Assembly (NCBI RefSeq): GCF_037031285.1
Contig: NZ_JAYEZO010000001.1
Location: 868,001 to 932,000 of the forward strand
Direction of reading: 5' to 3'
Source of the DNA: Halobellus sp. LT62
GTDB taxonomy: Archaea; Halobacteriota; Halobacteria; Halobacteriales; Haloferacaceae
Length of the DNA: 64,000 bases
Below the pieces are notes generated by a model. It saw only the letters and a list, made by a program, of their open reading frames with translations, had not been told where the DNA came from and searched no databases. Below are positions 631-54,837 of the stretch, in pieces (positions within the stretch are counted from its first letter, which is position 1; each line of letters begins with the position of its first letter). Both the position numbers and the translations under genes were made by a program.

Positions 631-1518
631 TCACATCTCCGCGCTCTGTTCGTCGATCGCGTCGGCGGCGATCGACCGGCCTCGCGCGTTCAACTCGACC
701 TCGTGGCGGATGCGGACCTCGTCTAAGACGTCGTGGTCGATGAGGCGGACGAACAGCTCTTCGACCTGCTCGACGTCGATGCCGAGAAACGCGGGGATGT
801 CGAACGGCGAGACGCCGGAGTACAGCGCCATCAACACCTGTTTGTCCTGCGTAGAGAGGTCTAACGACGTTTCGGTCTGCTCTTCGCCGATCCGAAGCAG
901 CGATCCTAGGATCACCACGTGTCGCTCGGGTCCCGACACGTACGTCTGCACGCTCGTCGAGTCGTCGGAGTGTTCGACCTCGATGACCTTCCGCTGCTCT
1001 TCTCTGACCGTCCGGTGTCCGATCTCGATGTCGCCGATGTCGTCCAGCGGGATCTCGACGAACCGACCCGTGACGGTCGCGATGCTGACCACCTCCGCGT
1101 TCTCCTCCACTTTGAGCCGCGCGCCGACCCACTCGGTGTTCTGGACGACGCCGCCCTCGACCGCCGGGTGACGGACGAGAAACTGCGTCGAGGAGAGCAA
1201 GGTATCGTAGATCTTCATCTTGAACTCCTCGAACTCCGCGGGCGCGACGAGGACCACGTCCTCACCGTCGTCGAACTGGAGAGCGATGTAGTCCGAAACC
1301 GTCGCGACGCGCTGGTTCACGTCGAATCGACCGCCGACTTGGTCGACGTCGCTCAGTAAAAAGGTGCGCTTGCCGCCGGTTCCGGCCAAGACGATCCGTC
1401 GATTCGAGAGCAGAATCCGGCCGTTCGTCCACGCCGCGTCGTTGCGCTCGCGACCGTTTCTGAGCGCCTGCAAGAAGCGACCGCGCGTGTCTTCGACCTT
1501 CGTCTCATCGGGTTCCAC
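631..1518 (-). CDS. cheF: Taxis protein CheF
   Basis: A 295-residue protein of the archaeal CheF family (DUF439). In haloarchaea, CheF proteins connect the Che signalling system, through CheY, to the archaellum motor. The N-terminal two thirds are beta-rich (RGRFLQALRNGRERNDAAW, then NRRIVLAGTGGKRTFLLSDVDQVGG), and the C-terminal third is a winged-helix-like region (LSTQDKQVLMALYSGV, then DIPAFLGIDVEQVEELFVRLI). It is the last gene of the cheB-cheA-cheR-cheF run and starts 7 bases after cheR. The start is a GTG preceded by a strong Shine-Dalgarno run (GGAGGTGA), which makes this choice secure. Confidence 0.9.
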   Translation of the reverse strand: MEPDETKVEDTRGRFLQALRNGRERNDAAWTNGRILLSNRRIVLAGTGGKRTFLLSDVDQVGGRFDVNQRVATVSDYIALQFDDGEDVVLVAPAEFEEFKMKIYDTLLSSTQFLVRHPAVEGGVVQNTEWVGARLKVEENAEVVSIATVTGRFVEIPLDDIGDIEIGHRTVREEQRKVIEVEHSDDSTSVQTYVSGPERHVVILGSLLRIGEEQTETSLDLSTQDKQVLMALYSGVSPFDIPAFLGIDVEQVEELFVRLIDHDVLDEVRIRHEVELNARGRSIAADAIDEQSAEM

Positions 1519-1524
1519 GTCTGC

Positions 1525-2391
1525 TCACCTCCGCAGTGCTGACGGCTGTTTCGCTCCCGTGTCGCGGTAGATTCTGAGCCGCTTTTCGACCGCCTCGAAG
1601 CGGTCGCGGCAGGACGACGGCACGGTCTCGGTCATCCCGATCGTCAGGTATCCACCGGATCTGACGGCGGAGCCGAGCGTCTCGAAGATTGCCTCCTTGG
1701 CCTCCTTGTTGATGTAAATAAACAGGTTCCGGCAGATGACGAGATCGAACGTGTCCGGCGGTTCCTCCTGCACCAGATCGTGGCGTCGGAACGAGACGAG
1801 GTCCCGCACCTCGTCGGTGACGCGGTACGTGTCGCCGTCGCGGTCGACGTACCGATCGCTGTGCGTCAGCGGTTCGAGCTGCTCTTCGAGATCGTTCGTC
1901 TCCGAGGCGTGATACTCGCCGCGGCGGGCCGCACGGAGAATCTCCGGTTTGATGTCCGTTCCGAGGATTTCGACGCGCCTGTGATCGATCCGATCGTCGT
2001 CGAGAGCGAGCATCGCCGCCGAGTACGCCTCGCGACCGTCCGAACAGGCGGCACTCCATATTCGGATCCGATCGCGACCGGAACCGGAGTCGCTGAGATC
2101 GGCCAGCAGTTCCCTGAGACCGTCCCAGACCTCGGGGTTGCGGAAGAAGCTCGTGACGTTGACGCTGAGCGCGTTCAAGAGCGCCTCCTGTTCGTCTTCG
2201 TCGTCCCGCAGGAGCACCAAGTAGGCGTCGTACTCGTCGACGTGCCGACGTCGCATCCGCGCGGAGACCCGCCTGTCCAAGTACGACCGGTTGTACGAAC
2301 TGGTTGCAAACGACAGCGAGGACTCGATGTACTCGAGTAGCTCCTCGAACGTCTCGGTGTCCGCGTCGCCGGTCTCCTCACCGAGGCCCAT
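1525..2391 (-). CDS. cheR: Chemotaxis protein methyltransferase CheR
   Basis: CheR transfers methyl groups from S-adenosylmethionine to glutamates of the chemoreceptor cytoplasmic domains, and so sets adaptation together with CheB. The 288-residue protein has the helical N-terminal CheR domain (SYNRSYLDRRVSARMRRR) followed by the SAM-binding domain (RIWSAACSDGREAYSAAML, ILGTDIKPEIL, DLVICRNLFIYI and GGYLTIGMTE). The motif usually written CSxGEE reads CSDGRE here. The ATG overlaps the cheA stop by one base (TGATG), indicating translational coupling. A much longer in-frame upstream extension exists, but it runs into cheA in a basic shadow frame and was discarded. Confidence 0.95.
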   Translation of the reverse strand: MGLGEETGDADTETFEELLEYIESSLSFATSSYNRSYLDRRVSARMRRRHVDEYDAYLVLLRDDEDEQEALLNALSVNVTSFFRNPEVWDGLRELLADLSDSGSGRDRIRIWSAACSDGREAYSAAMLALDDDRIDHRRVEILGTDIKPEILRAARRGEYHASETNDLEEQLEPLTHSDRYVDRDGDTYRVTDEVRDLVSFRRHDLVQEEPPDTFDLVICRNLFIYINKEAKEAIFETLGSAVRSGGYLTIGMTETVPSSCRDRFEAVEKRLRIYRDTGAKQPSALRR

Positions 2392-4919
2392 CAGTCGGCG
2401 GCCCCCTCGGCTTCGACGTTTTCGTCTTCCGGCGGGATCCACTGTCTCCGAGCCTGCTTTCCGCGTTCGGGGATGGAGAGAGAGTTGATATCGAGGATCG
2501 GCACGACGTTCCCGTCGCCGACGACGGCGGTTCCCGACAGCCCCTCGGTCCCCTTGAGCGGCCCCTGAAGCGGTGTGACGACGACTTCTTCCTGTCTGGC
2601 GACGCCGTCGCACCGGAGCGCCACCTGTCGATCCGCGGGGCGGACGCGGACGATCATTCCGCCGTCTTTCGATTCCGATTCGAGCGACAGCGCCTCGCGC
2701 AGGCGGATGAGCGGGAAGATGTGGTCTTCGTGGACGACGACCTCCGCGCCGTCGACGCGCTGGATCCGCTGCTGGCGGGAGATCTCGTCGATGTACTTGA
2801 TCGGCACGCCGAACTCCCGGTCGTCGATCCGGACGAAGAGCACCTTGATGATCGCGACCGTCACGGGGAGTCGAATCGAGATCGACGTGCCCTCTCCGAG
2901 CGTGCTGTCGACGTTCACGGAACCGTCGAGCGATTCGACGGTGGTCTTGACGACGTCCATTCCGACGCCGCGACCGCTGACGTCGGTGATTTCGTCGTTG
3001 GTCGAAAAGCCCGGATGGAAGACGAAGTCGTACACCTCCTCGTCCGGGAGTTCGGCCAACTCCTCGCGCGAGCGGATGCCGTTCTCGGCCGCTTTCTCCC
3101 TGATCGCGTCGGCGTCGATGCCGCCGCCGTCGTCCTCGACGGTGATGACGACGGTGTCGTGTTCGCGCTCGGCGCGCAACTCGATCGACCCCGTTCGGGA
3201 CTTCCCCGCCGCGACCCGTTCGTCCGGCGATTCGATCCCGTGATCGACCGCGTTTCGGAGCACGTGCATCAGCGGATCGGAGATCTCATCGAGGATCGTC
3301 CGGTCGAGTTCGATGTCCTGTCCCTCGACGGAGAAGCGGACTTTCTTGTCCTCCTCTCGCGCGAGGTCGCGAACGAGCCGCGGGAACTTATCGAAGACCT
3401 TCTTCAGCGGGATCAGCCGCATGTCCATCACCGTGTCTTGGAGATTCGAGGAGATCTTGTCCAACTCGTCGATGGTGTCTTTCCCGGCGGTTTCGTCCGT
3501 GTCCATCGCCTGCCGGAGCTTGATCCGGCTGGTGACGAGCTGCTCGACGAGGCTGTGGAGCTCGTCGAGCTGGTCGACGTCGACCCGGACCGACTTCACT
3601 TCCGAGATCGAGGGCGTCCCCTCGTCGCCCTCGTCTCGCCCTCCCGCTTCGGCGTCCGATCCCTCAGTTTCGCCCTCCGCTGTGTCCACTGAATTGCTTT
3701 CTCGGACGTCCTCGGGATCGCTTTCCGCTGTGCCTTCGGTGTCGTCGGCTCCGTTTCCGTGTTCGCCTGCAACGGCTTCGTCCGACTCGTTAGCGCCGAC
3801 AGCGGACTCGTCGGTGCGTACGTCCGCGACGGCTTCGCCTTCCGCGTCGTCGACACCGGAACCTGCTGCCGCGCCGTCATCCGCGTCGCCCGTCGACGTG
3901 TACGCCTCGACGACGGCGTCGACGGCCGCGGCGGCGGATACTTCGTCGACCTCTTCGCCGGCCGCGGCATCTCCGTGGCCCTCGTCACCGCCATCGTCCA
4001 CGGCGTCCCCGTGGCCCTCAACACCGCCACCGTCCCCGTGGCTCTCGATGGCCCCCGTACCCGCCGCGCCCGTGACGTCGTTGGCCTCGTCGAGGAACGC
4101 CCCGACGTCGGTCAGCGCGACCGAGTTCACCTTCCAGATGTCTTCGAGCGTCGATTCGAGCTCCGCGCGGGAGGCGTCGGCGACGAAGATGACGAAGTCA
4201 CCCTCGAAGTCGCCCTCGGCGATGCAGTTCAGGTTCGGCTCCGCGCCGACGACCGCGAGATCGTCGGGGAGGCCGCTGACGAACAGCCCGCCGTCGACCC
4301 CCTTCATATCCCCCGCGTCGAGTTCGATGCGGGCGTGATAGAGGTGGCTCGCGTTCGCGAGTGCGGGATCGTCGGCGTCGAGGACGTCAGTCGCCCGATC
4401 CAGCGCCTCGTGGTTGCTCGGCTCCGCCGACGTGGAGGCCGAACCCGTCGACGTGGAAGTCGAGTCGTCGCTGGCGGACGCGTCCGTCTCGGCCGACTCG
4501 GCCGAGCCGCCTCGTTCCGCTTCGACCGACCCCGTTGCGGTTTCAGGTTCTGCGGCCGCGCGAAGCGACTCGACGAGATCGCTCGGGTCGCGACGGGACT
4601 CGCCGTGGGATTCGATCTCGCGGAGGATGTCCAGAATCTCGTCCATCCCGTCGAAGACCAGATCCATCCGCTCGGTCGTGACCTCGATCTCGTCGTTCCG
4701 GACCGCATCGAGTAGGTCTTCGACGGCGTGCGCGACGGTCGCGGCGTTGTCGAACCCCATCGCGCCGAAGTTCCCCTTCAGGGTGTGTGCCTGTCGGAAG
4801 ATGTCGTCGATCGCCTCCGCGTCCTCGGGGTTCGCCTCCAGATCCAGAAGGGAGTTGTTCAACTGGGTGATGCTCTCTTCGGACTCGGTGATGAATTCCT
4901 GGTATAGTTCGTCGTCCAT
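2391..4919 (-). CDS. cheA: Chemotaxis histidine kinase CheA
   Basis: CheA is the histidine kinase of the receptor array; it phosphorylates CheY and CheB. The 842-residue protein has an N-terminal Hpt domain with the phosphorylated His near residue 45 (QAHTLKGNFGAMG), an acidic Ser/Thr-rich linker, a P2-like domain (about 160-260), a very long Gly/Asp/Glu linker (about 265-430), a helical dimerisation domain, the HATPase domain (N box LRNAVDHGIE, then DDGGGID and GRGVGMDVV) and a C-terminal CheW-like domain. The ATG three bases from the cheB stop starts directly at the Hpt domain; the upstream extension is a basic shadow reading. The extended acidic linker is the main size variable compared with other CheA proteins. 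Confidence 0.96.
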   Translation of the reverse strand: MDDELYQEFITESEESITQLNNSLLDLEANPEDAEAIDDIFRQAHTLKGNFGAMGFDNAATVAHAVEDLLDAVRNDEIEVTTERMDLVFDGMDEILDILREIESHGESRRDPSDLVESLRAAAEPETATGSVEAERGGSAESAETDASASDDSTSTSTGSASTSAEPSNHEALDRATDVLDADDPALANASHLYHARIELDAGDMKGVDGGLFVSGLPDDLAVVGAEPNLNCIAEGDFEGDFVIFVADASRAELESTLEDIWKVNSVALTDVGAFLDEANDVTGAAGTGAIESHGDGGGVEGHGDAVDDGGDEGHGDAAAGEEVDEVSAAAAVDAVVEAYTSTGDADDGAAAGSGVDDAEGEAVADVRTDESAVGANESDEAVAGEHGNGADDTEGTAESDPEDVRESNSVDTAEGETEGSDAEAGGRDEGDEGTPSISEVKSVRVDVDQLDELHSLVEQLVTSRIKLRQAMDTDETAGKDTIDELDKISSNLQDTVMDMRLIPLKKVFDKFPRLVRDLAREEDKKVRFSVEGQDIELDRTILDEISDPLMHVLRNAVDHGIESPDERVAAGKSRTGSIELRAEREHDTVVITVEDDGGGIDADAIREKAAENGIRSREELAELPDEEVYDFVFHPGFSTNDEITDVSGRGVGMDVVKTTVESLDGSVNVDSTLGEGTSISIRLPVTVAIIKVLFVRIDDREFGVPIKYIDEISRQQRIQRVDGAEVVVHEDHIFPLIRLREALSLESESKDGGMIVRVRPADRQVALRCDGVARQEEVVVTPLQGPLKGTEGLSGTAVVGDGNVVPILDINSLSIPERGKQARRQWIPPEDENVEAEGAAD

Positions 4920-13152: not shown

Positions 13153-13227
13153 GCTCCGTTGGTGTAGTCCGGCCAATCATCTTGCCCTCTCACGGCAAGG
13201 ACCAGGGTTCGAATCCCTGACGGAGCA
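13153..13227 (+). tRNA. tRNA-Glu (CTC anticodon)
   Basis: The 75-base cloverleaf closes fully. The acceptor is GCTCCGT paired with ACGGAGC. The anticodon stem TTGCC/GGCAA carries the seven-base loop CTCTCAC with anticodon CTC. The T arm is CAGGG/CCCTG around TTCGAAT, and the discriminator base is A. The 3' half of this gene is the integration target of the neighbouring island: bases 13186-13228 are duplicated at 55259-55301. The element reconstitutes an intact tRNA at this end. Confidence 0.97.
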
Positions 13228-38770: not shown

Positions 38771-41700
38771 CTACTTCTGGAAACTGATCTCGATCCGCAA
38801 GCTCGTCGCTTCGTCCGGCATCCGTTCGAACATATCCTGCACCTTGGCGTAGTCCTGTCCGGATCGAAGCGTCAGGCTCACCTGCGTGCGGTCAACGTCG
38901 GCAGTCCCCTGTAGCGTTCCAGGAACGCCTTCCTTATCCGGTAGCATAAACGTGACATCGCCGTATTCGACCTCGCCAGTCTGATGCTCCTTTCGCCATT
39001 TCTTCCGCATCGCCGCGACGTCTTCGCCGTTGTACTCGAAGCGCCACGTGTCGGCTTCTGTGTCTGCCTTCCGGAACGGATAGCCGGGCACCCAGTCAGA
39101 CGCCTTGTCCGATCCGGTCGTGTTGACGACGTACTCGGGCTCTTCGTCCTTGCCGATGTTCTCCAGCAAGAACGTCCGAACCATATGTTCGGTGACGCTG
39201 CTGTCAAACCGGTCGGTCACCTTGTTCACGGTGAACTGGTCGCCAGGATCGAGCTCCTCGATATACTCTAAGATTTGCTCGCCCACTCGGTCTGAAACCG
39301 TCGGCACGATCTTGACAGTCGTGGGGTCACGGTCACCGAGTGACTCTAGGTACCGACCACCGGCTTCCAGAACGTATTGGTCCACAAGGAAGTCGTTGAC
39401 TGCCTCAAGTGCTACAGTCTCCGTTTCATCGGGTGGCAGGAACACGCTCTCATCGCTTCGAATTTCTCCGATTATCGTATCGAGGTTCGCGTACCCATCC
39501 TCGTCGATAGATTCTTCAATCTGTTCTGAGAGGTGAGATGCCCCGACCACGGTCGCACTCCCGACATCCCGCAGCGTCGCGTCCGACTGCGGTTTGTCGA
39601 GAATCTCGTTTCCACGGACGATGACGTATTGATCCTCGCGGTTGAGTCGACCGATGGCACGCATAATGATGTCGTGGCTGTCCCCATCGATCCAGATCTC
39701 TCCGTCCTGGACGAGTTCGAGTTCGAAGTCCCCGATGTCGAGCGCTGTCGTCCCGCTGCCGAACCGCTGTCGGAGCTCCTGTTCCACGTCGTCGACGCCC
39801 CATACCCCGACGGCATTCTTGTGGACGAGTACCGTGTCGAGCGAACTGCCGGAGAGGTCGTCGCGGAACCCACTCGAATCGCGGGCGAGAATCGGTTTCT
39901 CTTCCAGGGCTTTGACGGTAGCGTTCAGGACGTCGTTGGCGCTTCCGGGGATGGGGAGTTCGGGATCTCGCAGGAACTGTTCGTATATGTCTTCGATCGA
40001 AATCTCGCCACGCCGGTCGAGCAGATCTTCGACGATTGGCCAGACGTGGGTCTGTAGATCGAAGGGGTCGGCAGCAGCGGAGTCAGCGATATTTGACGCG
40101 CTCAGCTCAGCACCATCTAGGACGTACACATCGAGGTCCATCGGAGCTGCAAGGTCGAATTCGTTGAGTAGGTCGTCGCCGTCGAGAACCTCGCCATAGA
40201 GCAACTGGAGCTCCTCTTGGAGTTCGCTCACTTCCTGCTCTTTCATACTCTCGATGGACTCACGGATCTCTTCGTCGAGAGACTCGTCTGCGAGCACCTG
40301 TCGAGCCCCCTCGATGTACCGTGCCTTGTCGATGTACCGCGTTCCGGATTCGATGGCCTTGTCGCCAGCGGGCTGGACGAACACGAGCGTGTTGCGCCAC
40401 TCGCGTCCACGACCATCGTTCGTGATGGCCTTCTCGACTTCTTCCTGTGTCCACTGGTCGTCTTTCACCACGACCTTGATTTCACGAGAGTCGGGGATGT
40501 CCCGAATGTCGTTCGTGCGGAACCCGACAGGATACGCGTTCGAGCCGAAGATGTCCGTAATGAAGTCCGCAATCTCGGCTTTCGCTGCCGTTTCGGACAC
40601 GTCGGTTGCGGCGTTCCGGATGAGTGCGTTGGGGTTCTGCCGGTCGCGGATCGCGTACTTCCCGTTGAGTTTGTGCAGATGCCACGCCACCCCGTGTAAC
40701 CGTTCGAGATCAAGCACGACATCGGCTACGAGGTCACCCGTCTGATACGCGCCCATCACGATTTCCGAAACGTCGGCTCCTTCTCCCTCACTCGGTTTCA
40801 GAGAGTACAGGAGAATCGTGTTCAGAACCCGGCGACCGTGTGGAACGGCGTCTGTATCGACGCGGCTTTTGATGTCGCCTGTGGCGGCGTTCAGCCGCTC
40901 ATAATTGATCTTGGCCAGTTCGTCTTCGAACCCGATCGCATCTATATCGCCGTGCGTGATCAGATCCGTCTGGTCCTGCATTTCGAGGAGAACCTTCGAG
41001 AAGAGGTAGATCATCCCGCGTGTATTCTGGTTCCCCTCATCAGCGTAGTAGCGCGTTTCGAGTGCATCGAGCAGCACGGGATGGAAGGGATAGAGATCGT
41101 GCATCTCGGACAGTAGATCGTCCGGGAGAGAGACGTGGTCAGACTGGTCGTAGGCATCGAAGTACCCGTTGACGATGTCGCGGGCGGCACTCTCGTCGAT
41201 GTCGTCGATCAAGCGGTGGCGCAGGACTTCCCGCTTGTCCACCTGGTTGTTCATATTGACTTCGACCGCCTGTTCTCGGTTCAGGATGTCGTGGACCTCG
41301 GAATCCTCGCGGAGCACGGAGACGATCGTGTAGAGTTCGAGATCCGAGAGAGCGGTCGATTCGAGTAGGGACTGCAGAAACGCTTTGTTCGAGCTCTTGC
41401 GGTCGCCTTGGAGCGTGTCGAACCAATCTTCGAGCTCGTCGACGAAGAACGCGACAGTCTCGTCGCCGACGGCATCCTGAATGGTCTGCATATCGGGGTA
41501 GCCGCCGGACTCGAACGTTCCAGGATCGTAATCGAGTGCTTCGAAGAAGGGCTCCCAGAGGTACTCGTACTGCTCGTTCTGCATTGCGACCGTGATCGGG
41601 ATCGCAGAATCGGGGAGCGCTGACTCGAATCCCTCAACCGAGTCGCTAGCCCAATCTGCCGCAGCACCGGGATCATCGAAGCAGTGATAGAGCGCGACCA

Positions 41701-41977
41701 TCTGGTGGGACTTCCCACTGCCGTACGGGCCATAGAGAATGTGTGTTCCGCGTGGGTCGTCGCCGGTCAGAGAATCCCGCAGGATCGTGAGAGCTTCTCG
41801 AAGCCCCTGTGTCATCAGCGTCCGTTCGAAGAAGAGCTCGGCATCTGATTCGAACTCGTCGTCGTTCTCAACGTTGTAGAGTTTTACTTGTCCGTCTATT
41901 TGGCCATCGTCTCGAAGTTCACGGCTCAGGGTAACCGTGTCTTCAAGAGTTTTGGGCAAAGCCTCAGTTCCCGACAT
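38771..41977 (-). CDS. DUF499 family ATPase
   Basis: A 1068-residue P-loop ATPase of the DUF499 type. Walker A is GPYGSGKS (83-90) and Walker B is AFFVDELEDWF near residue 180. The conserved motor-to-sensor region includes DLYPFHPVLLDALETRYY and TRGMIYLFSKVLLEM. The long C-terminal half is built from winged-helix-like modules and ends in a beta-rich segment. In DUF499/DUF1156 loci (Hma-like, BREX-like) this protein is a DNA-associated ATPase working with the methylase. A minus-strand TATA-like box lies about 35 bases before the start. The gene is GC-rich, like the flanks of the methylase gene and unlike the cassettes placed between the two. Confidence 0.9.
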   Translation of the reverse strand: MSGTEALPKTLEDTVTLSRELRDDGQIDGQVKLYNVENDDEFESDAELFFERTLMTQGLREALTILRDSLTGDDPRGTHILYGPYGSGKSHQMVALYHCFDDPGAAADWASDSVEGFESALPDSAIPITVAMQNEQYEYLWEPFFEALDYDPGTFESGGYPDMQTIQDAVGDETVAFFVDELEDWFDTLQGDRKSSNKAFLQSLLESTALSDLELYTIVSVLREDSEVHDILNREQAVEVNMNNQVDKREVLRHRLIDDIDESAARDIVNGYFDAYDQSDHVSLPDDLLSEMHDLYPFHPVLLDALETRYYADEGNQNTRGMIYLFSKVLLEMQDQTDLITHGDIDAIGFEDELAKINYERLNAATGDIKSRVDTDAVPHGRRVLNTILLYSLKPSEGEGADVSEIVMGAYQTGDLVADVVLDLERLHGVAWHLHKLNGKYAIRDRQNPNALIRNAATDVSETAAKAEIADFITDIFGSNAYPVGFRTNDIRDIPDSREIKVVVKDDQWTQEEVEKAITNDGRGREWRNTLVFVQPAGDKAIESGTRYIDKARYIEGARQVLADESLDEEIRESIESMKEQEVSELQEELQLLYGEVLDGDDLLNEFDLAAPMDLDVYVLDGAELSASNIADSAAADPFDLQTHVWPIVEDLLDRRGEISIEDIYEQFLRDPELPIPGSANDVLNATVKALEEKPILARDSSGFRDDLSGSSLDTVLVHKNAVGVWGVDDVEQELRQRFGSGTTALDIGDFELELVQDGEIWIDGDSHDIIMRAIGRLNREDQYVIVRGNEILDKPQSDATLRDVGSATVVGASHLSEQIEESIDEDGYANLDTIIGEIRSDESVFLPPDETETVALEAVNDFLVDQYVLEAGGRYLESLGDRDPTTVKIVPTVSDRVGEQILEYIEELDPGDQFTVNKVTDRFDSSVTEHMVRTFLLENIGKDEEPEYVVNTTGSDKASDWVPGYPFRKADTEADTWRFEYNGEDVAAMRKKWRKEHQTGEVEYGDVTFMLPDKEGVPGTLQGTADVDRTQVSLTLRSGQDYAKVQDMFERMPDEATSLRIEISFQK

Positions 41978-44055: not shown

Positions 44056-45807
44056 ATGGCCGATTACGACCTCGTTGACACAGAGGTCACTCACGAATCT
44101 GCCGACGAACTTCTTGATTCAATAAATCGAGATTCTTCTGATGACCACGTGCAGACAATTCAAGCAGTTCGTCTACAGGCAGGGCAACCAGATTCTGAAC
44201 TTAGATCTCTAAAGCAGTTGGACGAGGAGTCGGTCAAGCTACTTGAGCATCAGGTCGATGCCGCATATCAGGCCCTTTTCGAGATGGACGGGAAAGCGCT
44301 CCTCGCTGATGAGGTCGGCTTGGGTAAGACGATTGAAGTTGGGATGATCCTCAAGGAGATGCATTTCCGCGAGACGGATGATTCCGTTCTTATTCTTACG
44401 CCAGCCCAACTCGCCAAACAGTGGCAGGCCGAACTCCTGGAGAAATTCGGGCTTGAGTACGTGTGTAACTACGACGAAGAGTTCCGTGGCTTCGATCGTC
44501 ACGACCATATCATAGCAAGCATCGATACCGCAAAGAGCGACCGGCATCGAGCGACGGTACTGAACCGGGATTGGGATGTGCTTATCCTCGACGAGGCACA
44601 CTACGTGAAAAATGAGGAGACGGACCGTTATGATCTGATTGACAATCTCCCATACCAGTACGCATTTTTCTTGACTGCCACACCGATTCAAAACGAGTTG
44701 ACTGACCTGTATAATGTCGTTTCCCTACTTCGGCCTGGATTGTTCGGGACGCGCGATGTATTCCATCACTATTTCGTAGACCGCAATCAGGAGACCCTCG
44801 TTAACCGGGACGAGTTGCAGGAGCGACTGAACAAGGTGATGATTCGGAACCGACGCGCAGATACGGATATAGACTTCACAAACCGGAGTATCGATACTCG
44901 AACCTTTGACCCATCCCCTGAAGAGCGAGAGCTCTGCCAAGCTGTCTCTGATTACGTCAGAAACGCGTATAGCGAAGATCAGGGGCAAAAGCTCGTTCTA
45001 ATGTTACTCCAGAAAGAGGTCGTCAGTAGTCCGGCTGCGTTGAAAGCAACTATCGAGAAATGGCTTGATGATCAGTCTGAGCTCACACATACCGAAGAGT
45101 TAGAAACGATTCTCGATCTGATTGAGGGTATTGAAACAGTCACGAAACAGGAGAAGTTACTCAGTATTGTAGAAGAAGCCCGTGGCCGGGTTGAGATGGG
45201 TCGAGTCATCGTCTTTACGCAATTTAGAGCGACACAACGGGAAATCCTTGATCGACTTACTGAGGAAGGATATACTATCCACTCTTTCCACGGGGGACAC
45301 TCTAGCCAAGAGAAAGAACAGATCGTGAAGAACTTCGAGGAAGACGGTGGCGTATTAGTCTCAACGGACGCTATGTCCGAGGGGAGAAACCTTCAATTTT
45401 GCAATATTATGGTGAATTACGACCTGCCTTGGAATCCGATGCGTGTTGAACAGCGTATCGGCCGTATTCATCGGATCGGCCAAAAGCGCGACGTATACGT
45501 CTTCAATATGGCTTTGAAGGACACGGTTGAGGAGTACGTCTTAGAACGGCTATACCACAAAATCGATCTATTCCAGCAGTCTGTGGGCCAATTAAGCTCT
45601 ATCCTCACACGTATGGAAGAATCCGGGACGACGTTCGAGGACGAAATCTTCGAGCGGTTGGTTAACGCCGACTCCGAGGTCGATCTTGAGAATGACTTCG
45701 ACGCGATGGCTGTTGACCTACAGGAGCAGCGCGAGCTTGCAGAGAAGCTTGAGGTGTTCAACAGCGGCGTTTTCGAGGGATTCGACTTGGGGGCACGTGA
45801 TGACTGA
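44056..45807 (+). CDS. SNF2-family helicase
   Basis: A 583-residue superfamily 2 ATPase of the SNF2/HepA type. Motif I is DEVGLGKTIE near residue 86, motif II is DEAH near 178, motif III is LTATPIQNEL, and the C-terminal motifs include VIVFTQFRATQREI, VLVSTDAMSEGRNLQF and QRIGRIHRIGQ near 465. A charged helical C-terminus follows. It lacks nuclease or methylase domains. In the island it may supply the helicase part of a helicase-methylase-ATPase system together with the DUF1156 and DUF499 genes. The next gene, for a zinc-ribbon coiled coil, overlaps it by eight bases. Confidence 0.92.
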   Translation: MADYDLVDTEVTHESADELLDSINRDSSDDHVQTIQAVRLQAGQPDSELRSLKQLDEESVKLLEHQVDAAYQALFEMDGKALLADEVGLGKTIEVGMILKEMHFRETDDSVLILTPAQLAKQWQAELLEKFGLEYVCNYDEEFRGFDRHDHIIASIDTAKSDRHRATVLNRDWDVLILDEAHYVKNEETDRYDLIDNLPYQYAFFLTATPIQNELTDLYNVVSLLRPGLFGTRDVFHHYFVDRNQETLVNRDELQERLNKVMIRNRRADTDIDFTNRSIDTRTFDPSPEERELCQAVSDYVRNAYSEDQGQKLVLMLLQKEVVSSPAALKATIEKWLDDQSELTHTEELETILDLIEGIETVTKQEKLLSIVEEARGRVEMGRVIVFTQFRATQREILDRLTEEGYTIHSFHGGHSSQEKEQIVKNFEEDGGVLVSTDAMSEGRNLQFCNIMVNYDLPWNPMRVEQRIGRIHRIGQKRDVYVFNMALKDTVEEYVLERLYHKIDLFQQSVGQLSSILTRMEESGTTFEDEIFERLVNADSEVDLENDFDAMAVDLQEQRELAEKLEVFNSGVFEGFDLGARDD

Positions 45808-47581: not shown

Positions 47582-47771
47582 GTGAACTGCCGTAGTTAAC
47601 TGTTTGAATTCTCTGATCCTCTAGTAGCAAGAGTATCTAGTTGGCACGCAGAGTGAGTGACGAAATCAGGGGGTTTCGGTCACACTCTCTATTAGAACCG
47701 CGATCTCGATATATTCGGTAAGTACCCCAGTTGAGAGTATTCTCGTTGCTTTGACTACGAGAAACACGAAT

Positions 47772-47780
47772 GTTTTTTAC
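47772..47780 (+). promoter_or_regulatory. TATA-like box before the 47.8-kb RNA
   Basis: GTTTTTTAC is centred about 24 bases before the first base of the predicted RNA fold (47799). From 47582 to here no gene is visible. Confidence 0.5.
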
Positions 47781-47796
47781 ATTCACCCACGTCGAC

Positions 47797-47978
47797 TCAG
47801 CCGCGCACGAAAGTGCGCAAGCGAGAGGGAGTGCAGGCCTGCAAGCAAGCTCTCCCTCTCTTGCGGCTCCCGTATGGGAGCAATTGGGGATAATCGATCC
47901 GTGGATTTAGTTGTGCCGACCGCCCGACTTGTCAGGGCCTATCGCCGGGCCAGGACATAGCTGACCCTGATTGCTCCT
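47797..47978 (+). ncRNA. Predicted structured RNA of about 180 nt
   Basis: A GC-rich block with many perfect complementary segments: 47799-47803 with 47864-47868; hairpin 47804-47808/47813-47817 closed by a GAAA tetraloop; 47823-47831 with 47852-47860 (9 bp), capped by the palindrome TGCAGGCCTGCA; hairpin GCTCCC-GTAT-GGGAGC (47866-47881, alternative to the first helix); and a long-range 8-bp helix 47877-47884 with 47970-47977. An inner TCAGGG/CCCTGA helix (47932-47937 with 47965-47970) is also possible. It starts at the expected distance from a TATA-like box and ends before the small zinc-ribbon gene at 48006. It could be an independent ncRNA or a long regulatory leader. Confidence 0.6.
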
Positions 47979-48005: not shown

Positions 48006-48140
48006 ATGGAATTTACACTAGAATGCACCGAATGCAACGCCACAATCACAGGCAGCGACGACAAGAGCGAATTCAACCAGAAGATCGAGTGCCCGGAATG
48101 CCCGGGTATCTACGCAATCGCGGTGACTAAAATCAGATGA
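48006..48140 (+). CDS. 44-residue zinc-ribbon protein
   Basis: A very small protein with two CxxC pairs (CTEC and CPEC about 22 residues apart) in an otherwise acidic sequence ending IYAIAVTKIR, the shape of a single zinc ribbon. It lies 27 bases after the predicted RNA and its stop overlaps the ATG of the HalOD1 gene (ATGA), which supports real translation. Haloarchaea encode many such tiny zinc proteins, some of them regulators. Function unknown. Confidence 0.65.
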   Translation: MEFTLECTECNATITGSDDKSEFNQKIECPECPGIYAIAVTKIR

Positions 48141-48343
48141 CGGCCGATCTAACAACTACTATTGTGCGTAGAACGAGCGAGGTAGCTGGGACTGACCCAG
48201 GCGAGTTACCACCATTGTACGAATCCATCGATCCAGACGCTCTCGAAACAGTTGCGAGCAATTCTGAGAGTGTTGTGTTCACGTACGCAGGCTGTAATAT
48301 AGTCATCAAAGGTGGAGACGTATCCGTTGAACCCATCGAGTGA
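48137..48343 (+). CDS. HalOD1 output domain protein
   Basis: A 68-residue protein made of a single halobacterial output domain (HalOD1). The family pattern is clear: a helix, then ELPPLYESIDPDALETV, then SVVFTYAGCNIVIKGGDVSVE. HalOD1 domains are found alone or at the end of response regulators in haloarchaea and are believed to pass on regulatory signals, but the mechanism is not known. It is coupled by overlap to the zinc-ribbon gene before it, and the membrane protein gene starts one base after its stop. Confidence 0.85.
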   Translation: MTADLTTTIVRRTSEVAGTDPGELPPLYESIDPDALETVASNSESVVFTYAGCNIVIKGGDVSVEPIE

Positions 48344-48344
48344 T

Positions 48345-49268
48345 ATGATCGTGATAGAAATGTGTCAAAGCACGCGTCGATCCAGATTGCTGGTTGGTAT
48401 TGTTGTGATGTTGGTAATCGGGATCGCTGGGGTGCCGCTCACGGGACTTACTACCAATGACGGAATTGCTACAGCGCAGGAAGGGAACGACGAACCAGAG
48501 ATCGAGATGCTGTCTGACGTGGAGACGTCGACAGTGTACATACATACGAACTACGATGGATCGGTCTCATTCCTTCTCGGTTTTAATTATTACTTGGAGT
48601 CAGACGAAGAACGCGAGCAGTTCGAAGAATATACTGATGATTCCGATTTACAAGAGGAGATCGCGGACTCGTTTGCAGAAGATATGCGTGGAGTGGCTAC
48701 CGAAACTGACGGAGCTGACGCGGATGGTATTCACGAGCCCGGTGCGCGTATCCAGATGACCGAGAACGGTGAGGTCGGGTTTGTTGACGTGTGGGTTGAG
48801 TGGGATGGGTTGCTCTCTGTCGAGAACGGCGAACTCGTGATGACGGAGCCGTTTGCCAGCGGATTCGGCCCACAATCTGATGCGGTTCAGAGTGCTGGAT
48901 TACCCGATAATGAGGAAGCGGCGGTTGGGGTCGAGCCCACGCCTGTAGAAGACCTCGTCGTGTGGGTTCCACAGCGGGGCGCTGACCAGTTCTCATCGGC
49001 AACCCCCGAACCAGTCGAAACGGCCGATGAAGGACACGTTGTTGGGCTCGATATGTCCGAGGGCTTCAGCGATGACTTCGAGATCCGGATGGATCCGGCG
49101 GATGGCGCTGAGATTGGTCCAGATGCTGGGTCCGAAAACGGCGAAGATGGTTTTAGTCTAGATTCGCCTGGTCAAATGGGGACATATATTGCATGGACGG
49201 TTACAGCGCTTGCACTTATCGGGATAGTGGCTGGTGGAGTGTTCGTAGTGAGACGGTACCGTCGGTAA
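48345..49268 (+). CDS. Exported membrane-anchored protein (DUF7345-like)
   Basis: A 307-residue protein with a signal peptide-like N-terminus (basic RRSRLL, then VGIVVMLVIGIAGVPLTG), an acidic extracellular domain (about 45-260) and a C-terminal membrane helix (AWTVTALALIGIVAGGVFVV) followed by the basic tail RRYRR. The outer domain, with YDGSVSFLLGFNYYLESDEEREQFEEY, a helix, then VGFVDVWVEWDGLL and VVWVPQRG, resembles haloarchaeal DUF7345 proteins. It is the third gene after the structured RNA. An ATG at 48360 is an alternative start. Surface role unknown. Confidence 0.75.
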   Translation: MIVIEMCQSTRRSRLLVGIVVMLVIGIAGVPLTGLTTNDGIATAQEGNDEPEIEMLSDVETSTVYIHTNYDGSVSFLLGFNYYLESDEEREQFEEYTDDSDLQEEIADSFAEDMRGVATETDGADADGIHEPGARIQMTENGEVGFVDVWVEWDGLLSVENGELVMTEPFASGFGPQSDAVQSAGLPDNEEAAVGVEPTPVEDLVVWVPQRGADQFSSATPEPVETADEGHVVGLDMSEGFSDDFEIRMDPADGAEIGPDAGSENGEDGFSLDSPGQMGTYIAWTVTALALIGIVAGGVFVVRRYRR

Positions 49269-53250: not shown

Positions 53251-54837
53251 TCAGTACGCAACATCAAACTCATAGAACGTCTGTAGAATATCGAAAAGAA
53301 TCATAATGGACATTCCCCATTGGGAATTGCGATATGGGAGATGACCGTGAGAAATCTTGTTTCGTACATTCTGCCCCGATAAATCCGCGTACCAGTATTT
53401 CATATACGCTATCCAGTCTTCGTCGACATCGTCTTCAATCTGATAAAGCAAACCACTAAGCGATCTCCTCTTCAATTCGCCAGTCTCAGAATTGAGTTGG
53501 AGTATGCTTTTATTATTTCGAGACATTAATTTTCTTAGAACAGCTTCTAATTGTGGCATTCCGATGTGGGTTGCCGCAACTGGGTTATGGTCAAATAGAT
53601 GAATAATGAAGTCAGTCAGGTATGCGAGATTATCGCTAGATAACTCGTCCCGTCTGTTGAACAGAAGGAAGAAATCGCCTTCATAAATGAGCCCTCGGTT
53701 TTGCAACCGATAATATACTGACTGACGGAGATTCTGTGTCATCTGGACCATTCCGCCATAACTCTGTGGGCGGTCCCCACTTGCCTCATCCTGCGAGTAA
53801 GACCCACCCTCTCGTGTAATCGTTCGAGTTTGAATTATATTAGTGATACTTCCTGCAGAGATGTCTCTAGCAGTTTCGATACTTGGTTTGAAGACGTCGT
53901 GATTGATGAGCCAGAGTATCGCACCAACTGTGTTTGACTCGGATTTACGCTTTTGAAATCTGTCAATGATCTCTTCTATGGCTTCGTCAAGTTCAGATAT
54001 ATCTTCTTCAGATGGCTCGTAGGCGAGTTCAGCCATTTGATTAATATTCTTTTTGTTACCATCGAGATATTCATGTTCCCATTCTACCCGCTGCGGATCA
54101 TCAATCCATTCGATACACTCTATAATTGCTTCATGAGCGAATGTAGCACGCTGAGAATGTTGATCCCTCTCTTTGTGGAACTCGATTTGCTTCTCGTATG
54201 AGTCAATGATCGCTCCCCGTGCAGGTTTAACGTCTAGATCGTTTGTATCCCGTCGAATCTGAAGGTTTCGTCGCCATAGATGTCGGTAATCGTTATAGCC
54301 GTTTGCTCGGATTGCCTTGTCTGCTTGCGACTCTGTATATCGCAGGATGGTTTCTATGGTATCTCTTTCTTGGATTGAGTTGAGACTCTCAATTATTACG
54401 TCAAGAATTTCAAAGATTGGTCCTATCGGTATCGAATCTTCCTTCTCAGTGAGAAAGCCAGCCGCTTCACTAATCGCATCTTGTAATTCCTCAGTATGAT
54501 TGAGCTGATCCAATAGCCTAATTCGCTCTTCAATGACCTTTGGGGCGATTCTCTCCCAATTCTCGTCAAGTGCCAGTTCAACGCTTTCCCTAAGACTTAC
54601 TATGGCGAGTTCAGCTCCCCCTTCGTAATCCTCGATTTCTTCCCAGCGTGATAATCCATCAAGAAAATTAAGGAGTGGATGATCTCTCTCAAGTTCGTGA
54701 ATTTCGTCCCGAATTTTACGTGGTGACCGTCCCCATTCTCCGCGTAATTCTCTAAGAGTGCCGTTGAACACGGTACCGAATCTGGATTCAGTCGACCCGT
54801 GTTCTAGTAGTGATTCCAATTCATCTCCGAGGCGCAT
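53251..54837 (-). CDS. DUF4209-like protein with a HEPN-type motif
   Basis: A 528-residue, mainly helical protein. The C-terminal 110 residues match the DUF4209 style: a helical region with DFFLLFNRRDELSS and, near residue 492, GQNVRNKISHGHL. RNKISH is an R-N-x3-H motif as found in HEPN ribonucleases and in the RN-x3-HG signature of this family. The N-terminal 400 residues contain many amphipathic helices of helical-repeat type (LESLLEHG, then RLLDQLNHTEELQDAI). It is the last gene of the island before attR and is AT-rich. A defence effector that cuts RNA is an inference from the motif. Confidence 0.65.
   Translation of the reverse strand: MRLGDELESLLEHGSTESRFGTVFNGTLRELRGEWGRSPRKIRDEIHELERDHPLLNFLDGLSRWEEIEDYEGGAELAIVSLRESVELALDENWERIAPKVIEERIRLLDQLNHTEELQDAISEAAGFLTEKEDSIPIGPIFEILDVIIESLNSIQERDTIETILRYTESQADKAIRANGYNDYRHLWRRNLQIRRDTNDLDVKPARGAIIDSYEKQIEFHKERDQHSQRATFAHEAIIECIEWIDDPQRVEWEHEYLDGNKKNINQMAELAYEPSEEDISELDEAIEEIIDRFQKRKSESNTVGAILWLINHDVFKPSIETARDISAGSITNIIQTRTITREGGSYSQDEASGDRPQSYGGMVQMTQNLRQSVYYRLQNRGLIYEGDFFLLFNRRDELSSDNLAYLTDFIIHLFDHNPVAATHIGMPQLEAVLRKLMSRNNKSILQLNSETGELKRRSLSGLLYQIEDDVDEDWIAYMKYWYADLSGQNVRNKISHGHLPYRNSQWGMSIMILFDILQTFYEFDVAY

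What the first reader, a model, noticed from the sequence alone, without database searches (positions are those of the whole stretch)
47797..47978. Elaborate 180-nt structured RNA encoded in the island
At least five helices with perfect pairing, including a GAAA-capped hairpin, a 9-bp stem with a palindromic cap and an 8-bp long-range closing helix. They start 24 bases after a TATA-like box and end before a tiny zinc-ribbon gene. The GC content contrasts with AT-rich flanks. This could be a new ncRNA class or a regulatory leader of the zinc-ribbon/HalOD1/membrane-protein operon.
Basis: seen in the sequence. Interest (0 to 1): 0.7.

Follow-up and report, generated by a model that had tools for sequence, protein, structure and literature searches.

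The report
Conserved haloarchaeal zinc-ribbon leader RNA
A folded stretch of RNA about 180 bases long, found in several families of salt-loving archaea and repeated up to nine times in one genome, sits just before a tiny zinc-binding protein gene and a signalling gene and probably controls them; its shape has been preserved by matching mutations.

Summary
The structured RNA is real and conserved. The + strand folds better than all 200 shuffles (z -3.8), and no Rfam family reaches its threshold. Covariance models built here find it at E<=1e-4 in 36 of 391 Halobacteria-class genomes: 29 Natrialbaceae-type, 5 of the window's family, 2 of a third family. In nine genomes examined more fully, copies run from 2 to 9. 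The helices covary (19 of 36 pairs changed on both sides, shuffles 6.8), and the window's 9-bp stem exists in several other fully compensated versions. Of 89 copies, 86 are followed on the same strand by a small zinc ribbon, a stand-alone HalOD1 gene, or both. Of 80 strong zinc-ribbon hits, 79 follow the RNA, median gap 17 nt. A promoter-like box sits 28 nt before the first hairpin. Best reading: a new class of 5' leader RNA controlling a zinc-ribbon/HalOD1 operon; a co-encoded trans-acting RNA is the main rival. A switch mechanism is only a hypothesis: its alternative pairing does not covary clearly above shuffles. The membrane-protein gene is not part of the conserved unit.

The parts
47768..47784 (+). 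Inverted repeat GAATGT-TTTTT-ACATTC with the TATA-like box TTTTAC (47775-47780); probable promoter of the RNA
   Evidence: Sequence. Natrialbaceae copies have CCTAACG-TTCTTTA in its place, most often inside ATCCTAACGTTCTTTAGGAT, with the same 28-nt offset to P1
47803..47818 (+). P1: GCGCAC-GAAA-GTGCGC, GNRA-type capped hairpin at the predicted 5' end
   Evidence: compensated variants GCGCGC/GCGCGT, GCACT/AGTGC, GCACAC/GTGTGC in relatives; covariation
47823..47860 (+). P2: 9-bp stem GAGAGGGAG/CTCCCTCTC with a 20-nt cap
   Evidence: Other compensated versions: GAGCCGGAG/CTCCGGCTC, GAGAAGGAG/CTCCTTCTC, ACGGGAGAG/CTCTCCCGT, CACGGAGGAAC/GTTCCTCCGTG, CAGCGCAGGGGAG/CTCCCCTGTGCTG
47866..47881 (+). P3: GCTCCC-GTAT-GGGAGC hairpin
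   Evidence: covariation helix 3 (98.7% paired, 3 of 5 pairs changed on both sides)
47904..47920 (+). Conserved, mostly unpaired core GATTTAGTTGTGCCGAC (Natrialbaceae: GAAATAAAGANNTGCCGAC), in the P4 region
   Evidence: Alignments
47881..47973 (+). P5 closing helix CAATTGGGG (47881-47889) with CCCTGATTG (47965-47973); its extension GGAGC/GCTCC (to 47877 and 47977) competes with P3
   Evidence: homologous CAATCC/GGRTTG helix covaries (helix 4, 6 of 6 pairs changed on both sides)
47799..47978 (+). The structured leader RNA as a whole
48006..48140 (+). 44-aa zinc ribbon (CxxC...CxxC...YAIAV) downstream of the RNA
   Evidence: no Pfam or NCBIfam cut-off reached; relatives under purifying selection
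48137..48343 (+). 68-aa stand-alone HalOD1 protein, start overlaps the zinc-ribbon stop by 4 nt
   Evidence: PF18545 E 5e-17, 62.3 bits over cut-off 26.3

Best explanation
The element is the 5' leader of a short operon, and a member of a previously uncatalogued class of structured leader RNA of haloarchaea. Shown by sequence: a promoter-like box at fixed distance; then P1, P2, P3, a conserved core with the P4 region, and a closing helix P5; then, after a short gap, a tiny zinc-ribbon gene and a stand-alone HalOD1 signalling gene. Inferred: transcription starts at P1, so the mRNA of the zinc-ribbon/HalOD1 pair carries the fold in its 5'-UTR. The leader then sets how much of the two proteins is made, by binding something (the zinc ribbon itself, another protein, or a small ligand) at the conserved core and shifting between P3 and the extended P5, which lies next to the start codon. 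Multiple cassettes per genome would let a cell set several HalOD1 outputs through one RNA signal.
For: Same strand, directly upstream: 86 of 89 copies precede a zinc ribbon and/or HalOD1 (67 both, 12 zinc ribbon only, 7 HalOD1 only, 3 neither). 79 of 80 strong zinc-ribbon hits (E<=3.7e-11) follow the RNA: 77 by coordinates, gap median 17 nt, quartiles 15 and 18, and two more found on fetching. That gap leaves no room for a separate promoter outside the RNA. The RNA stays whichever of the two genes is lost. The promoter offset is constant. Fold: covariation beyond shuffles and slid controls, compensated P1-P3 in divergent members. Both ORFs evolve under purifying selection (median pN/pS 0.51 and 0.55). 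P3 is complementary to the tail before the start codon beyond shuffles in 45 of 76 copies (z<=-2) against 1 and 2 of 76 for P1 and P2 controls. In the window two states differing in P3 have equal predicted energy, -92.1 kcal/mol. HalOD1 proteins have signalling roles: DdfA of Haloferax volcanii is needed for disk shape (PMC10869688, passages).
Against: No transcript data. The alternative (switch) pairing covaries no better than shuffles on most measures (28, 156, 6, 169 and 50 of 500 shuffles reach the five observed values). For the window alone the P3-tail complementarity is not better than shuffled (z +1.0), and the predicted balance depends on the fragment: P3 probability 0.18 but 0.00. One copy with an intact fold and no unread bases has neither gene (L070). 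In genome G362 the RNA and HalOD1 persist while the cysteines of several zinc ribbons are lost (L117, L120-L122), which speaks against the zinc ribbon as the only partner. Copies are related, so counts are not independent.
Confidence: 0.55

Rival explanations
1. A trans-acting non-coding RNA: the leader is processed off or is itself the product, works elsewhere as an RNA or RNP, and the zinc ribbon (and HalOD1) are its protein partners made from the same transcript.
For: Up to nine copies per genome with an almost invariant core; near-obligate pairing of this zinc ribbon with the RNA (79 of 80); one intact RNA copy without either gene (L070).
Against: The RNA also occurs with HalOD1 alone (7 of 89); the zinc ribbon starts 15-18 nt after the RNA in the middle half of the copies, typical of a leader; 86 of 89 RNA copies stand before these genes.
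Confidence: 0.3
2. A DNA-level or selfish element: palindromes kept by recombination, template switching or cassette duplication rather than for an RNA function.
For: Multiple, sometimes tandem cassettes with 1.3-2.4 kb between RNA copies; the P2 cap occurs in both orientations (57 forward, 13 reversed, 18 unclear of 88), as inversion between palindromic arms would give; the window copy lies in a low-GC island beside a tRNA gene.
Against: An unpaired core is conserved, not only palindromes; fixed promoter offset; purifying selection on the attached ORFs; cassettes sit among different chromosomal genes and none of the 15 listed neighbourhoods showed a mobile-element gene that travels with them, by eye.
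Confidence: 0.1
3. A type III-like toxin-antitoxin pair, with the RNA as antitoxin.
For: Structured RNA directly before a small ORF, in cassettes; in the window in a defence-rich island.
Against: One RNA unit per cassette, no tandem RNA repeats; neither ORF resembles an endoribonuclease toxin; HalOD1 is a signalling domain family (PMC5847659, passages).
Confidence: 0.03

Closest known systems
Cis-regulatory leader RNAs (riboswitches and protein-binding autoregulatory leaders)
   Same: Structured, covarying RNA in the 5' leader position of a defined set of genes, with a conserved core and a helix that can compete with a helix near the start codon
   Different: No match to any Rfam family; attached to zinc-ribbon and HalOD1 genes; haloarchaeal. 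A 2021 paper states that the only experimentally determined natural archaeal riboswitch is the fluoride one of Thermococcus kodakarensis (PMC8241225, passages)
Stand-alone HalOD1 proteins, including DdfA
   Same: The second gene is a HalOD1 protein; stand-alone HalOD1 genes are multicopy, 49 in Haloterrigena turkmenica (PMC5847659, passages)
   Different: Only a minority carry the RNA: 1 of 14 in the window's genome; no leader RNA is mentioned in the passages read. The window protein is below the DdfA cut-off (51.7 of 70 bits)
Haloarchaeal C(P)XCG zinc-finger micro-proteins, e.g. HVO_0758
   Same: Tiny two-knuckle zinc-binding-type protein; weak similarity to HVO_0758 (E 5.6e-4)
   Different: Far below the HVO_0758 cut-offs (20.1 of 27 and 18.7 of 70 bits). 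Papers on these proteins seen as search listing only

Membership tests
Any of the 4227 Rfam 15 families | Match at the family's gathering score | tested here: not met
   Only a tRNA in the whole window; permissive scan gives three chance microRNA matches, best E 0.94
A distinct conserved structured RNA class | Homologues with compensatory changes beyond controls | tested here: met
   Searches (81 sequences, model-fitted; 24 sequences, MAFFT alignment not fitted to the structure): 0 of 500 shuffles reach any of the five measures
A distinct conserved structured RNA class | Transcribed as RNA | not testable with these tools
   No transcriptome data; only promoter-like sequence at constant offset
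Cis-regulatory leader RNA | Same-strand position in the 5' leader of a consistent set of genes | tested here: met
   86 of 89; 79 of 80 zinc ribbons
Cis-regulatory leader RNA (riboswitch type) | Mutually exclusive structures linking core and expression platform | tested here: inconclusive
   Complementarity in 45 of 76, but alternative pairs do not covary clearly above shuffles
Riboswitch | Binds a small ligand and changes expression | not testable with these tools
   Needs in-line probing or reporters
HalOD1 (PF18545) | Score above Pfam cut-off | tested here: met
   62.3 bits, cut-off 26.3
DdfA (NF053557) | Score above NCBIfam cut-off | tested here: not met
   51.7 bits, cut-off 70
HVO_0758 zinc micro-protein | Score above cut-off | tested here: not met
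   20.1 of 27 bits, 18.7 of 70 bits
Type III toxin-antitoxin | Repeated RNA units before an endoribonuclease toxin gene | tested here: not met
   Single RNA unit per cassette; no toxin family in the downstream ORFs

The most novel reading that the evidence does not exclude
A natural switch-type leader RNA class of haloarchaea: one RNA sensor, copied up to nine times in a genome, that reads a single signal at a conserved core and, by strand exchange between P3 and the extended P5, sets translation of a whole paralogous set of zinc-ribbon/HalOD1 signalling pairs. It would be a genome-wide RNA-controlled signalling regulon in archaea.
Probability: 0.25. Interest if true: 0.85.

Novelty: new variant of a known kind. 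Interest (0 to 1): 0.68.

Why it matters
Few structured leader RNAs are known in archaea, and one 2021 source counts a single experimentally determined natural archaeal riboswitch (PMC8241225, passages). This class is conserved and multicopy in Natrialbaceae, some of which are cultured, and it gives a first genetic handle on HalOD1, a large haloarchaeal signalling family whose inputs and partners are unresolved (PMC5847659, passages; PMC10869688, passages). The helices are defined, so function can be tested directly by compensatory mutation.

Tried and rejected
blastn alone: 55 of 391 genomes at E<=0.1, but many are short chance matches, so counts are taken from the covariance models. Weak R2 hits in G348, G291, G153, G099 and G381 (L164-L168) were read and show no P1-P2-P3 series or cassette; they look like coding sequence or chance and were not counted. 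The two other weak hits above E 1e-4 (G149, G021) were not followed.

Zinc ribbon as a marker of the RNA everywhere: a class-wide search found this zinc-ribbon type at E<=1e-4 in 142 of 391 genomes. Of 20 of the weaker hits fetched with their upstream DNA plus G312:C11 (21 loci), only L234 and L253 showed a low-energy leader recognised by eye as related, and one more RNA was found in L246 by model; one of the 20, G037 (E 1.0e-11), is the single RNA-less member of the 80 strong hits. So the RNA marks a subset of the zinc ribbons.

Viral or plasmid carriage: DNA searches found none beyond one chance match; HalOD1 tblastn against phages gave none. Outside the window's order: 13 of 387 genomes of a phylum sample match at E<=1e-4, all in the same order.

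A helix AGCCGC/GCGGCT closing P1 and P2 in the window is not kept in Natrialbaceae copies (by eye), so it was dropped. The alternative long-range pairing was tested and is only weakly supported; and 87 copies with N, with no recognisable P3, or (79, 87) the near-duplicate L084 were dropped (80, 76 and 75 used of 89 copies), and automatic P3 finding was wrong for a few divergent ones.

Sequence counts: the 89 copies are the 81 model matches plus L086, L087, L162, L163 and L169-L172; L246, L257, L258, L234 and L253 came later or are partial and are not in that count.

Full report
Observation. The stretch 47797-47978 (+) folds at -84.0 kcal/mol against -67.0 +/- 4.5 for shuffled sequences (z -3.80, 0 of 200). 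Nothing in Rfam fits. The TATA-like box starts 28 nt before P1. The surrounding low-GC region runs from about 14 to 56 kb and begins beside a tRNA gene at 13153-13227, so 'island' is fair.

Homologues. A blastn search of 391 Halobacteria-class genomes found clear matches (best E 1.2e-19) that share the hairpins. A covariance model from 14 of them (R1) scores the window at E 1.3e-13 although the window was not used to build it. A second model from 81 matches (R2, which includes the window) finds 43 of 391 genomes at E<=0.1 and, by my count of the listing, 36 at E<=1e-4: 29 in family f4, 5 in the window's family f1, 2 in f3. An exact search for the core names carriers as Natrinema, Halopiger, Natrialba and Natrarchaeobius (a few bacterial matches in that list are expected by chance), and contig lengths tie f4 handles to them; that these genera are Natrialbaceae is recalled. 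None of the other 12 sampled genomes of the window's genus has a match at E<=1e-4. In a phylum sample 13 of 387 genomes match, all in the same order.

Copy number. In nine f4 genomes searched with more candidates scored, I count full-length sense copies as 9 (G151, Halopiger djelfimassiliensis), 8 (G312), 7 (G308), 4, 4, 3, 3, 3 and 2.

Fold. On the 81-sequence alignment (fitted to the model) 94.2% of cells pair, 19 of 36 pairs have a change on both sides (shuffles 6.8) and no shuffle of 500 reaches any of the five measures; sliding partners by 1-3 columns lowers pairing to 33-44%. On 24 sequences aligned without structure, P1 and P2 give 96.7% paired and 8 of 15 pairs changed on both sides (shuffles 2.2), again 0 of 500. 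Divergent members show the same P1-P2-P3 series with different letters: P2 is GAGAGGGAG/CTCCCTCTC in the window, GAGCCGGAG/CTCCGGCTC in Natrialbaceae, GAGAAGGAG/CTCCTTCTC in L162, ACGGGAGAG/CTCTCCCGT in L234, and CACGGAGGAAC/GTTCCTCCGTG in L246. For L163 the script found P1 and P2 but no clear P3, and for L079 and L081 a P3 of only 4 bp. The closing helix P5 covaries at all six pairs. P4 is well supported in Natrialbaceae only; in the window the corresponding region keeps the unpaired core GATTTAGTTGTGCCGAC (Natrialbaceae GAAATAAAGANNTGCCGAC).

Context. Of 89 copies, 67 are followed by a zinc ribbon and HalOD1, 12 by the zinc ribbon only, 7 by HalOD1 only, 3 by neither (L070; L119, decayed; L171, unread bases). 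Conversely, 79 of the 80 best class-wide zinc-ribbon hits follow the RNA, with a median gap of 17 nt for the 77 matched by coordinates. HalOD1 alone is no marker: the window's genome has 14 HalOD1 matches and one RNA. Zinc-ribbon and HalOD1 reading frames overlap (by 4 nt in the window, about 47 nt in many Natrialbaceae copies). Both are under purifying selection (pN<pS in 756 of 768 and 697 of 700 pairs kept; 40 and 38 sequences that fitted the extraction patterns). Genes beyond HalOD1 vary (15 copies listed), so the window's membrane protein (48345-49268) is not part of the unit.

Promoter. Upstream of almost all Natrialbaceae copies stands CCTAACGTTCTTTA or a near variant, most often within ATCCTAACGTTCTTTAGGAT; its TTTA begins 28 nt before P1, as does TTTTAC in the window; L083, L086 and L087 have comparable boxes. 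By the usual spacing of archaeal promoters (recalled) transcription would begin at P1.

Mechanism. The position, the tight gap and the shared promoter make a 5' leader the simplest reading. P3 competes with an extension of P5 that reaches toward the start codon: in the window GGAGC pairs either in P3 or with GCTCC at 47973-47977, and forcing P3 costs nothing in predicted energy (-92.1 in both). Over the family, P3 is complementary to the tail beyond shuffles in 45 of 76 copies against 1 and 2 of 76 for P1 and P2 used as controls. But the alternative pairs do not covary clearly beyond shuffles, the window alone is not significant (z +1.0), and predicted probabilities vary with the fragment. A switch is therefore an hypothesis. 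What is sensed is unknown; the zinc ribbon is an obvious candidate because of its near-obligate pairing with the RNA, but RNA plus HalOD1 persists where the zinc ribbon is gone or has lost cysteines.

Comparison with what is known. HalOD1 was defined as an output domain in haloarchaeal signalling, with over 2,000 proteins containing it (PMC5847659, passages). DdfA, a HalOD1 protein, is required for disk shape in Haloferax volcanii (PMC10869688, passages); the window's protein is related but below the DdfA cut-off. Tiny zinc-finger proteins of haloarchaea are being studied (search listing). Full-text searches for HalOD1, for haloarchaeal structured or small RNAs, riboswitches, leaders and zinc ribbons listed no paper, by title or opening of abstract, that describes this RNA; the library is open-access only, so this is weak evidence of absence.

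Verdict. A real, new, covarying class of haloarchaeal leader RNA; its regulatory role is likely but not shown.

Noticed in passing
A3 / P2 cap in many loci, e.g. L073, L094, L097, L115, L118, L170, L172: The cap of P2 occurs in both orientations among copies: 57 forward, 13 reversed, 18 unclear of 88. It looks like inversion between the palindromic arms, perhaps template switching (recalled).
   Followed up: partly
window 13153-56000: Low-GC genomic island (2-kb bins 0.45-0.58 between 14 and 56 kb, 0.60-0.70 before it) starting beside a tRNA gene, with defence-like genes: HmaC/DUF499-type 38774-41977, DrmD-like SNF2 helicase 44056-45804, PDC-S39-like 53254-54837.
   Followed up: partly
L068, L072, L076; L073, L089, L091-L093: Several Natrialbaceae cassettes sit beside amino-acid biosynthesis genes recognised by eye: leuCD/leuB-like in the first group (L072 by resemblance of a neighbouring gene only), trpG/trpE-like in the second. 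No regulatory link tested.
   Followed up: no
L246 (G213) about 1500-3276, minus strand: An RNA copy is separated from its zinc-ribbon gene by an insertion that begins with a palindrome in the P4 region; it resembles an IS605-type element by eye, not tested.
   Followed up: partly
L234 (G312:C11) 1534-1697, minus strand: A very diverged member with a window-type zinc ribbon, z -4.1, found by model only with filters off (E 1.2e-4); further diverged members may be missed.
   Followed up: partly
L117, L118, L120-L122 (G362): Cassettes in one draft genome where the zinc ribbon is losing cysteines while the RNA and HalOD1 persist.
   Followed up: no
L069 between cassettes: An ORF made of a repeated motif resembling a CRISPR repeat lies between two tandem cassettes (resemblance recalled).
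   Followed up: no
L232 (G180:C1) and many f1 genomes: The same zinc-ribbon type without the RNA; in L232 it stands before a gene resembling riboflavin synthase by eye.
   Followed up: partly
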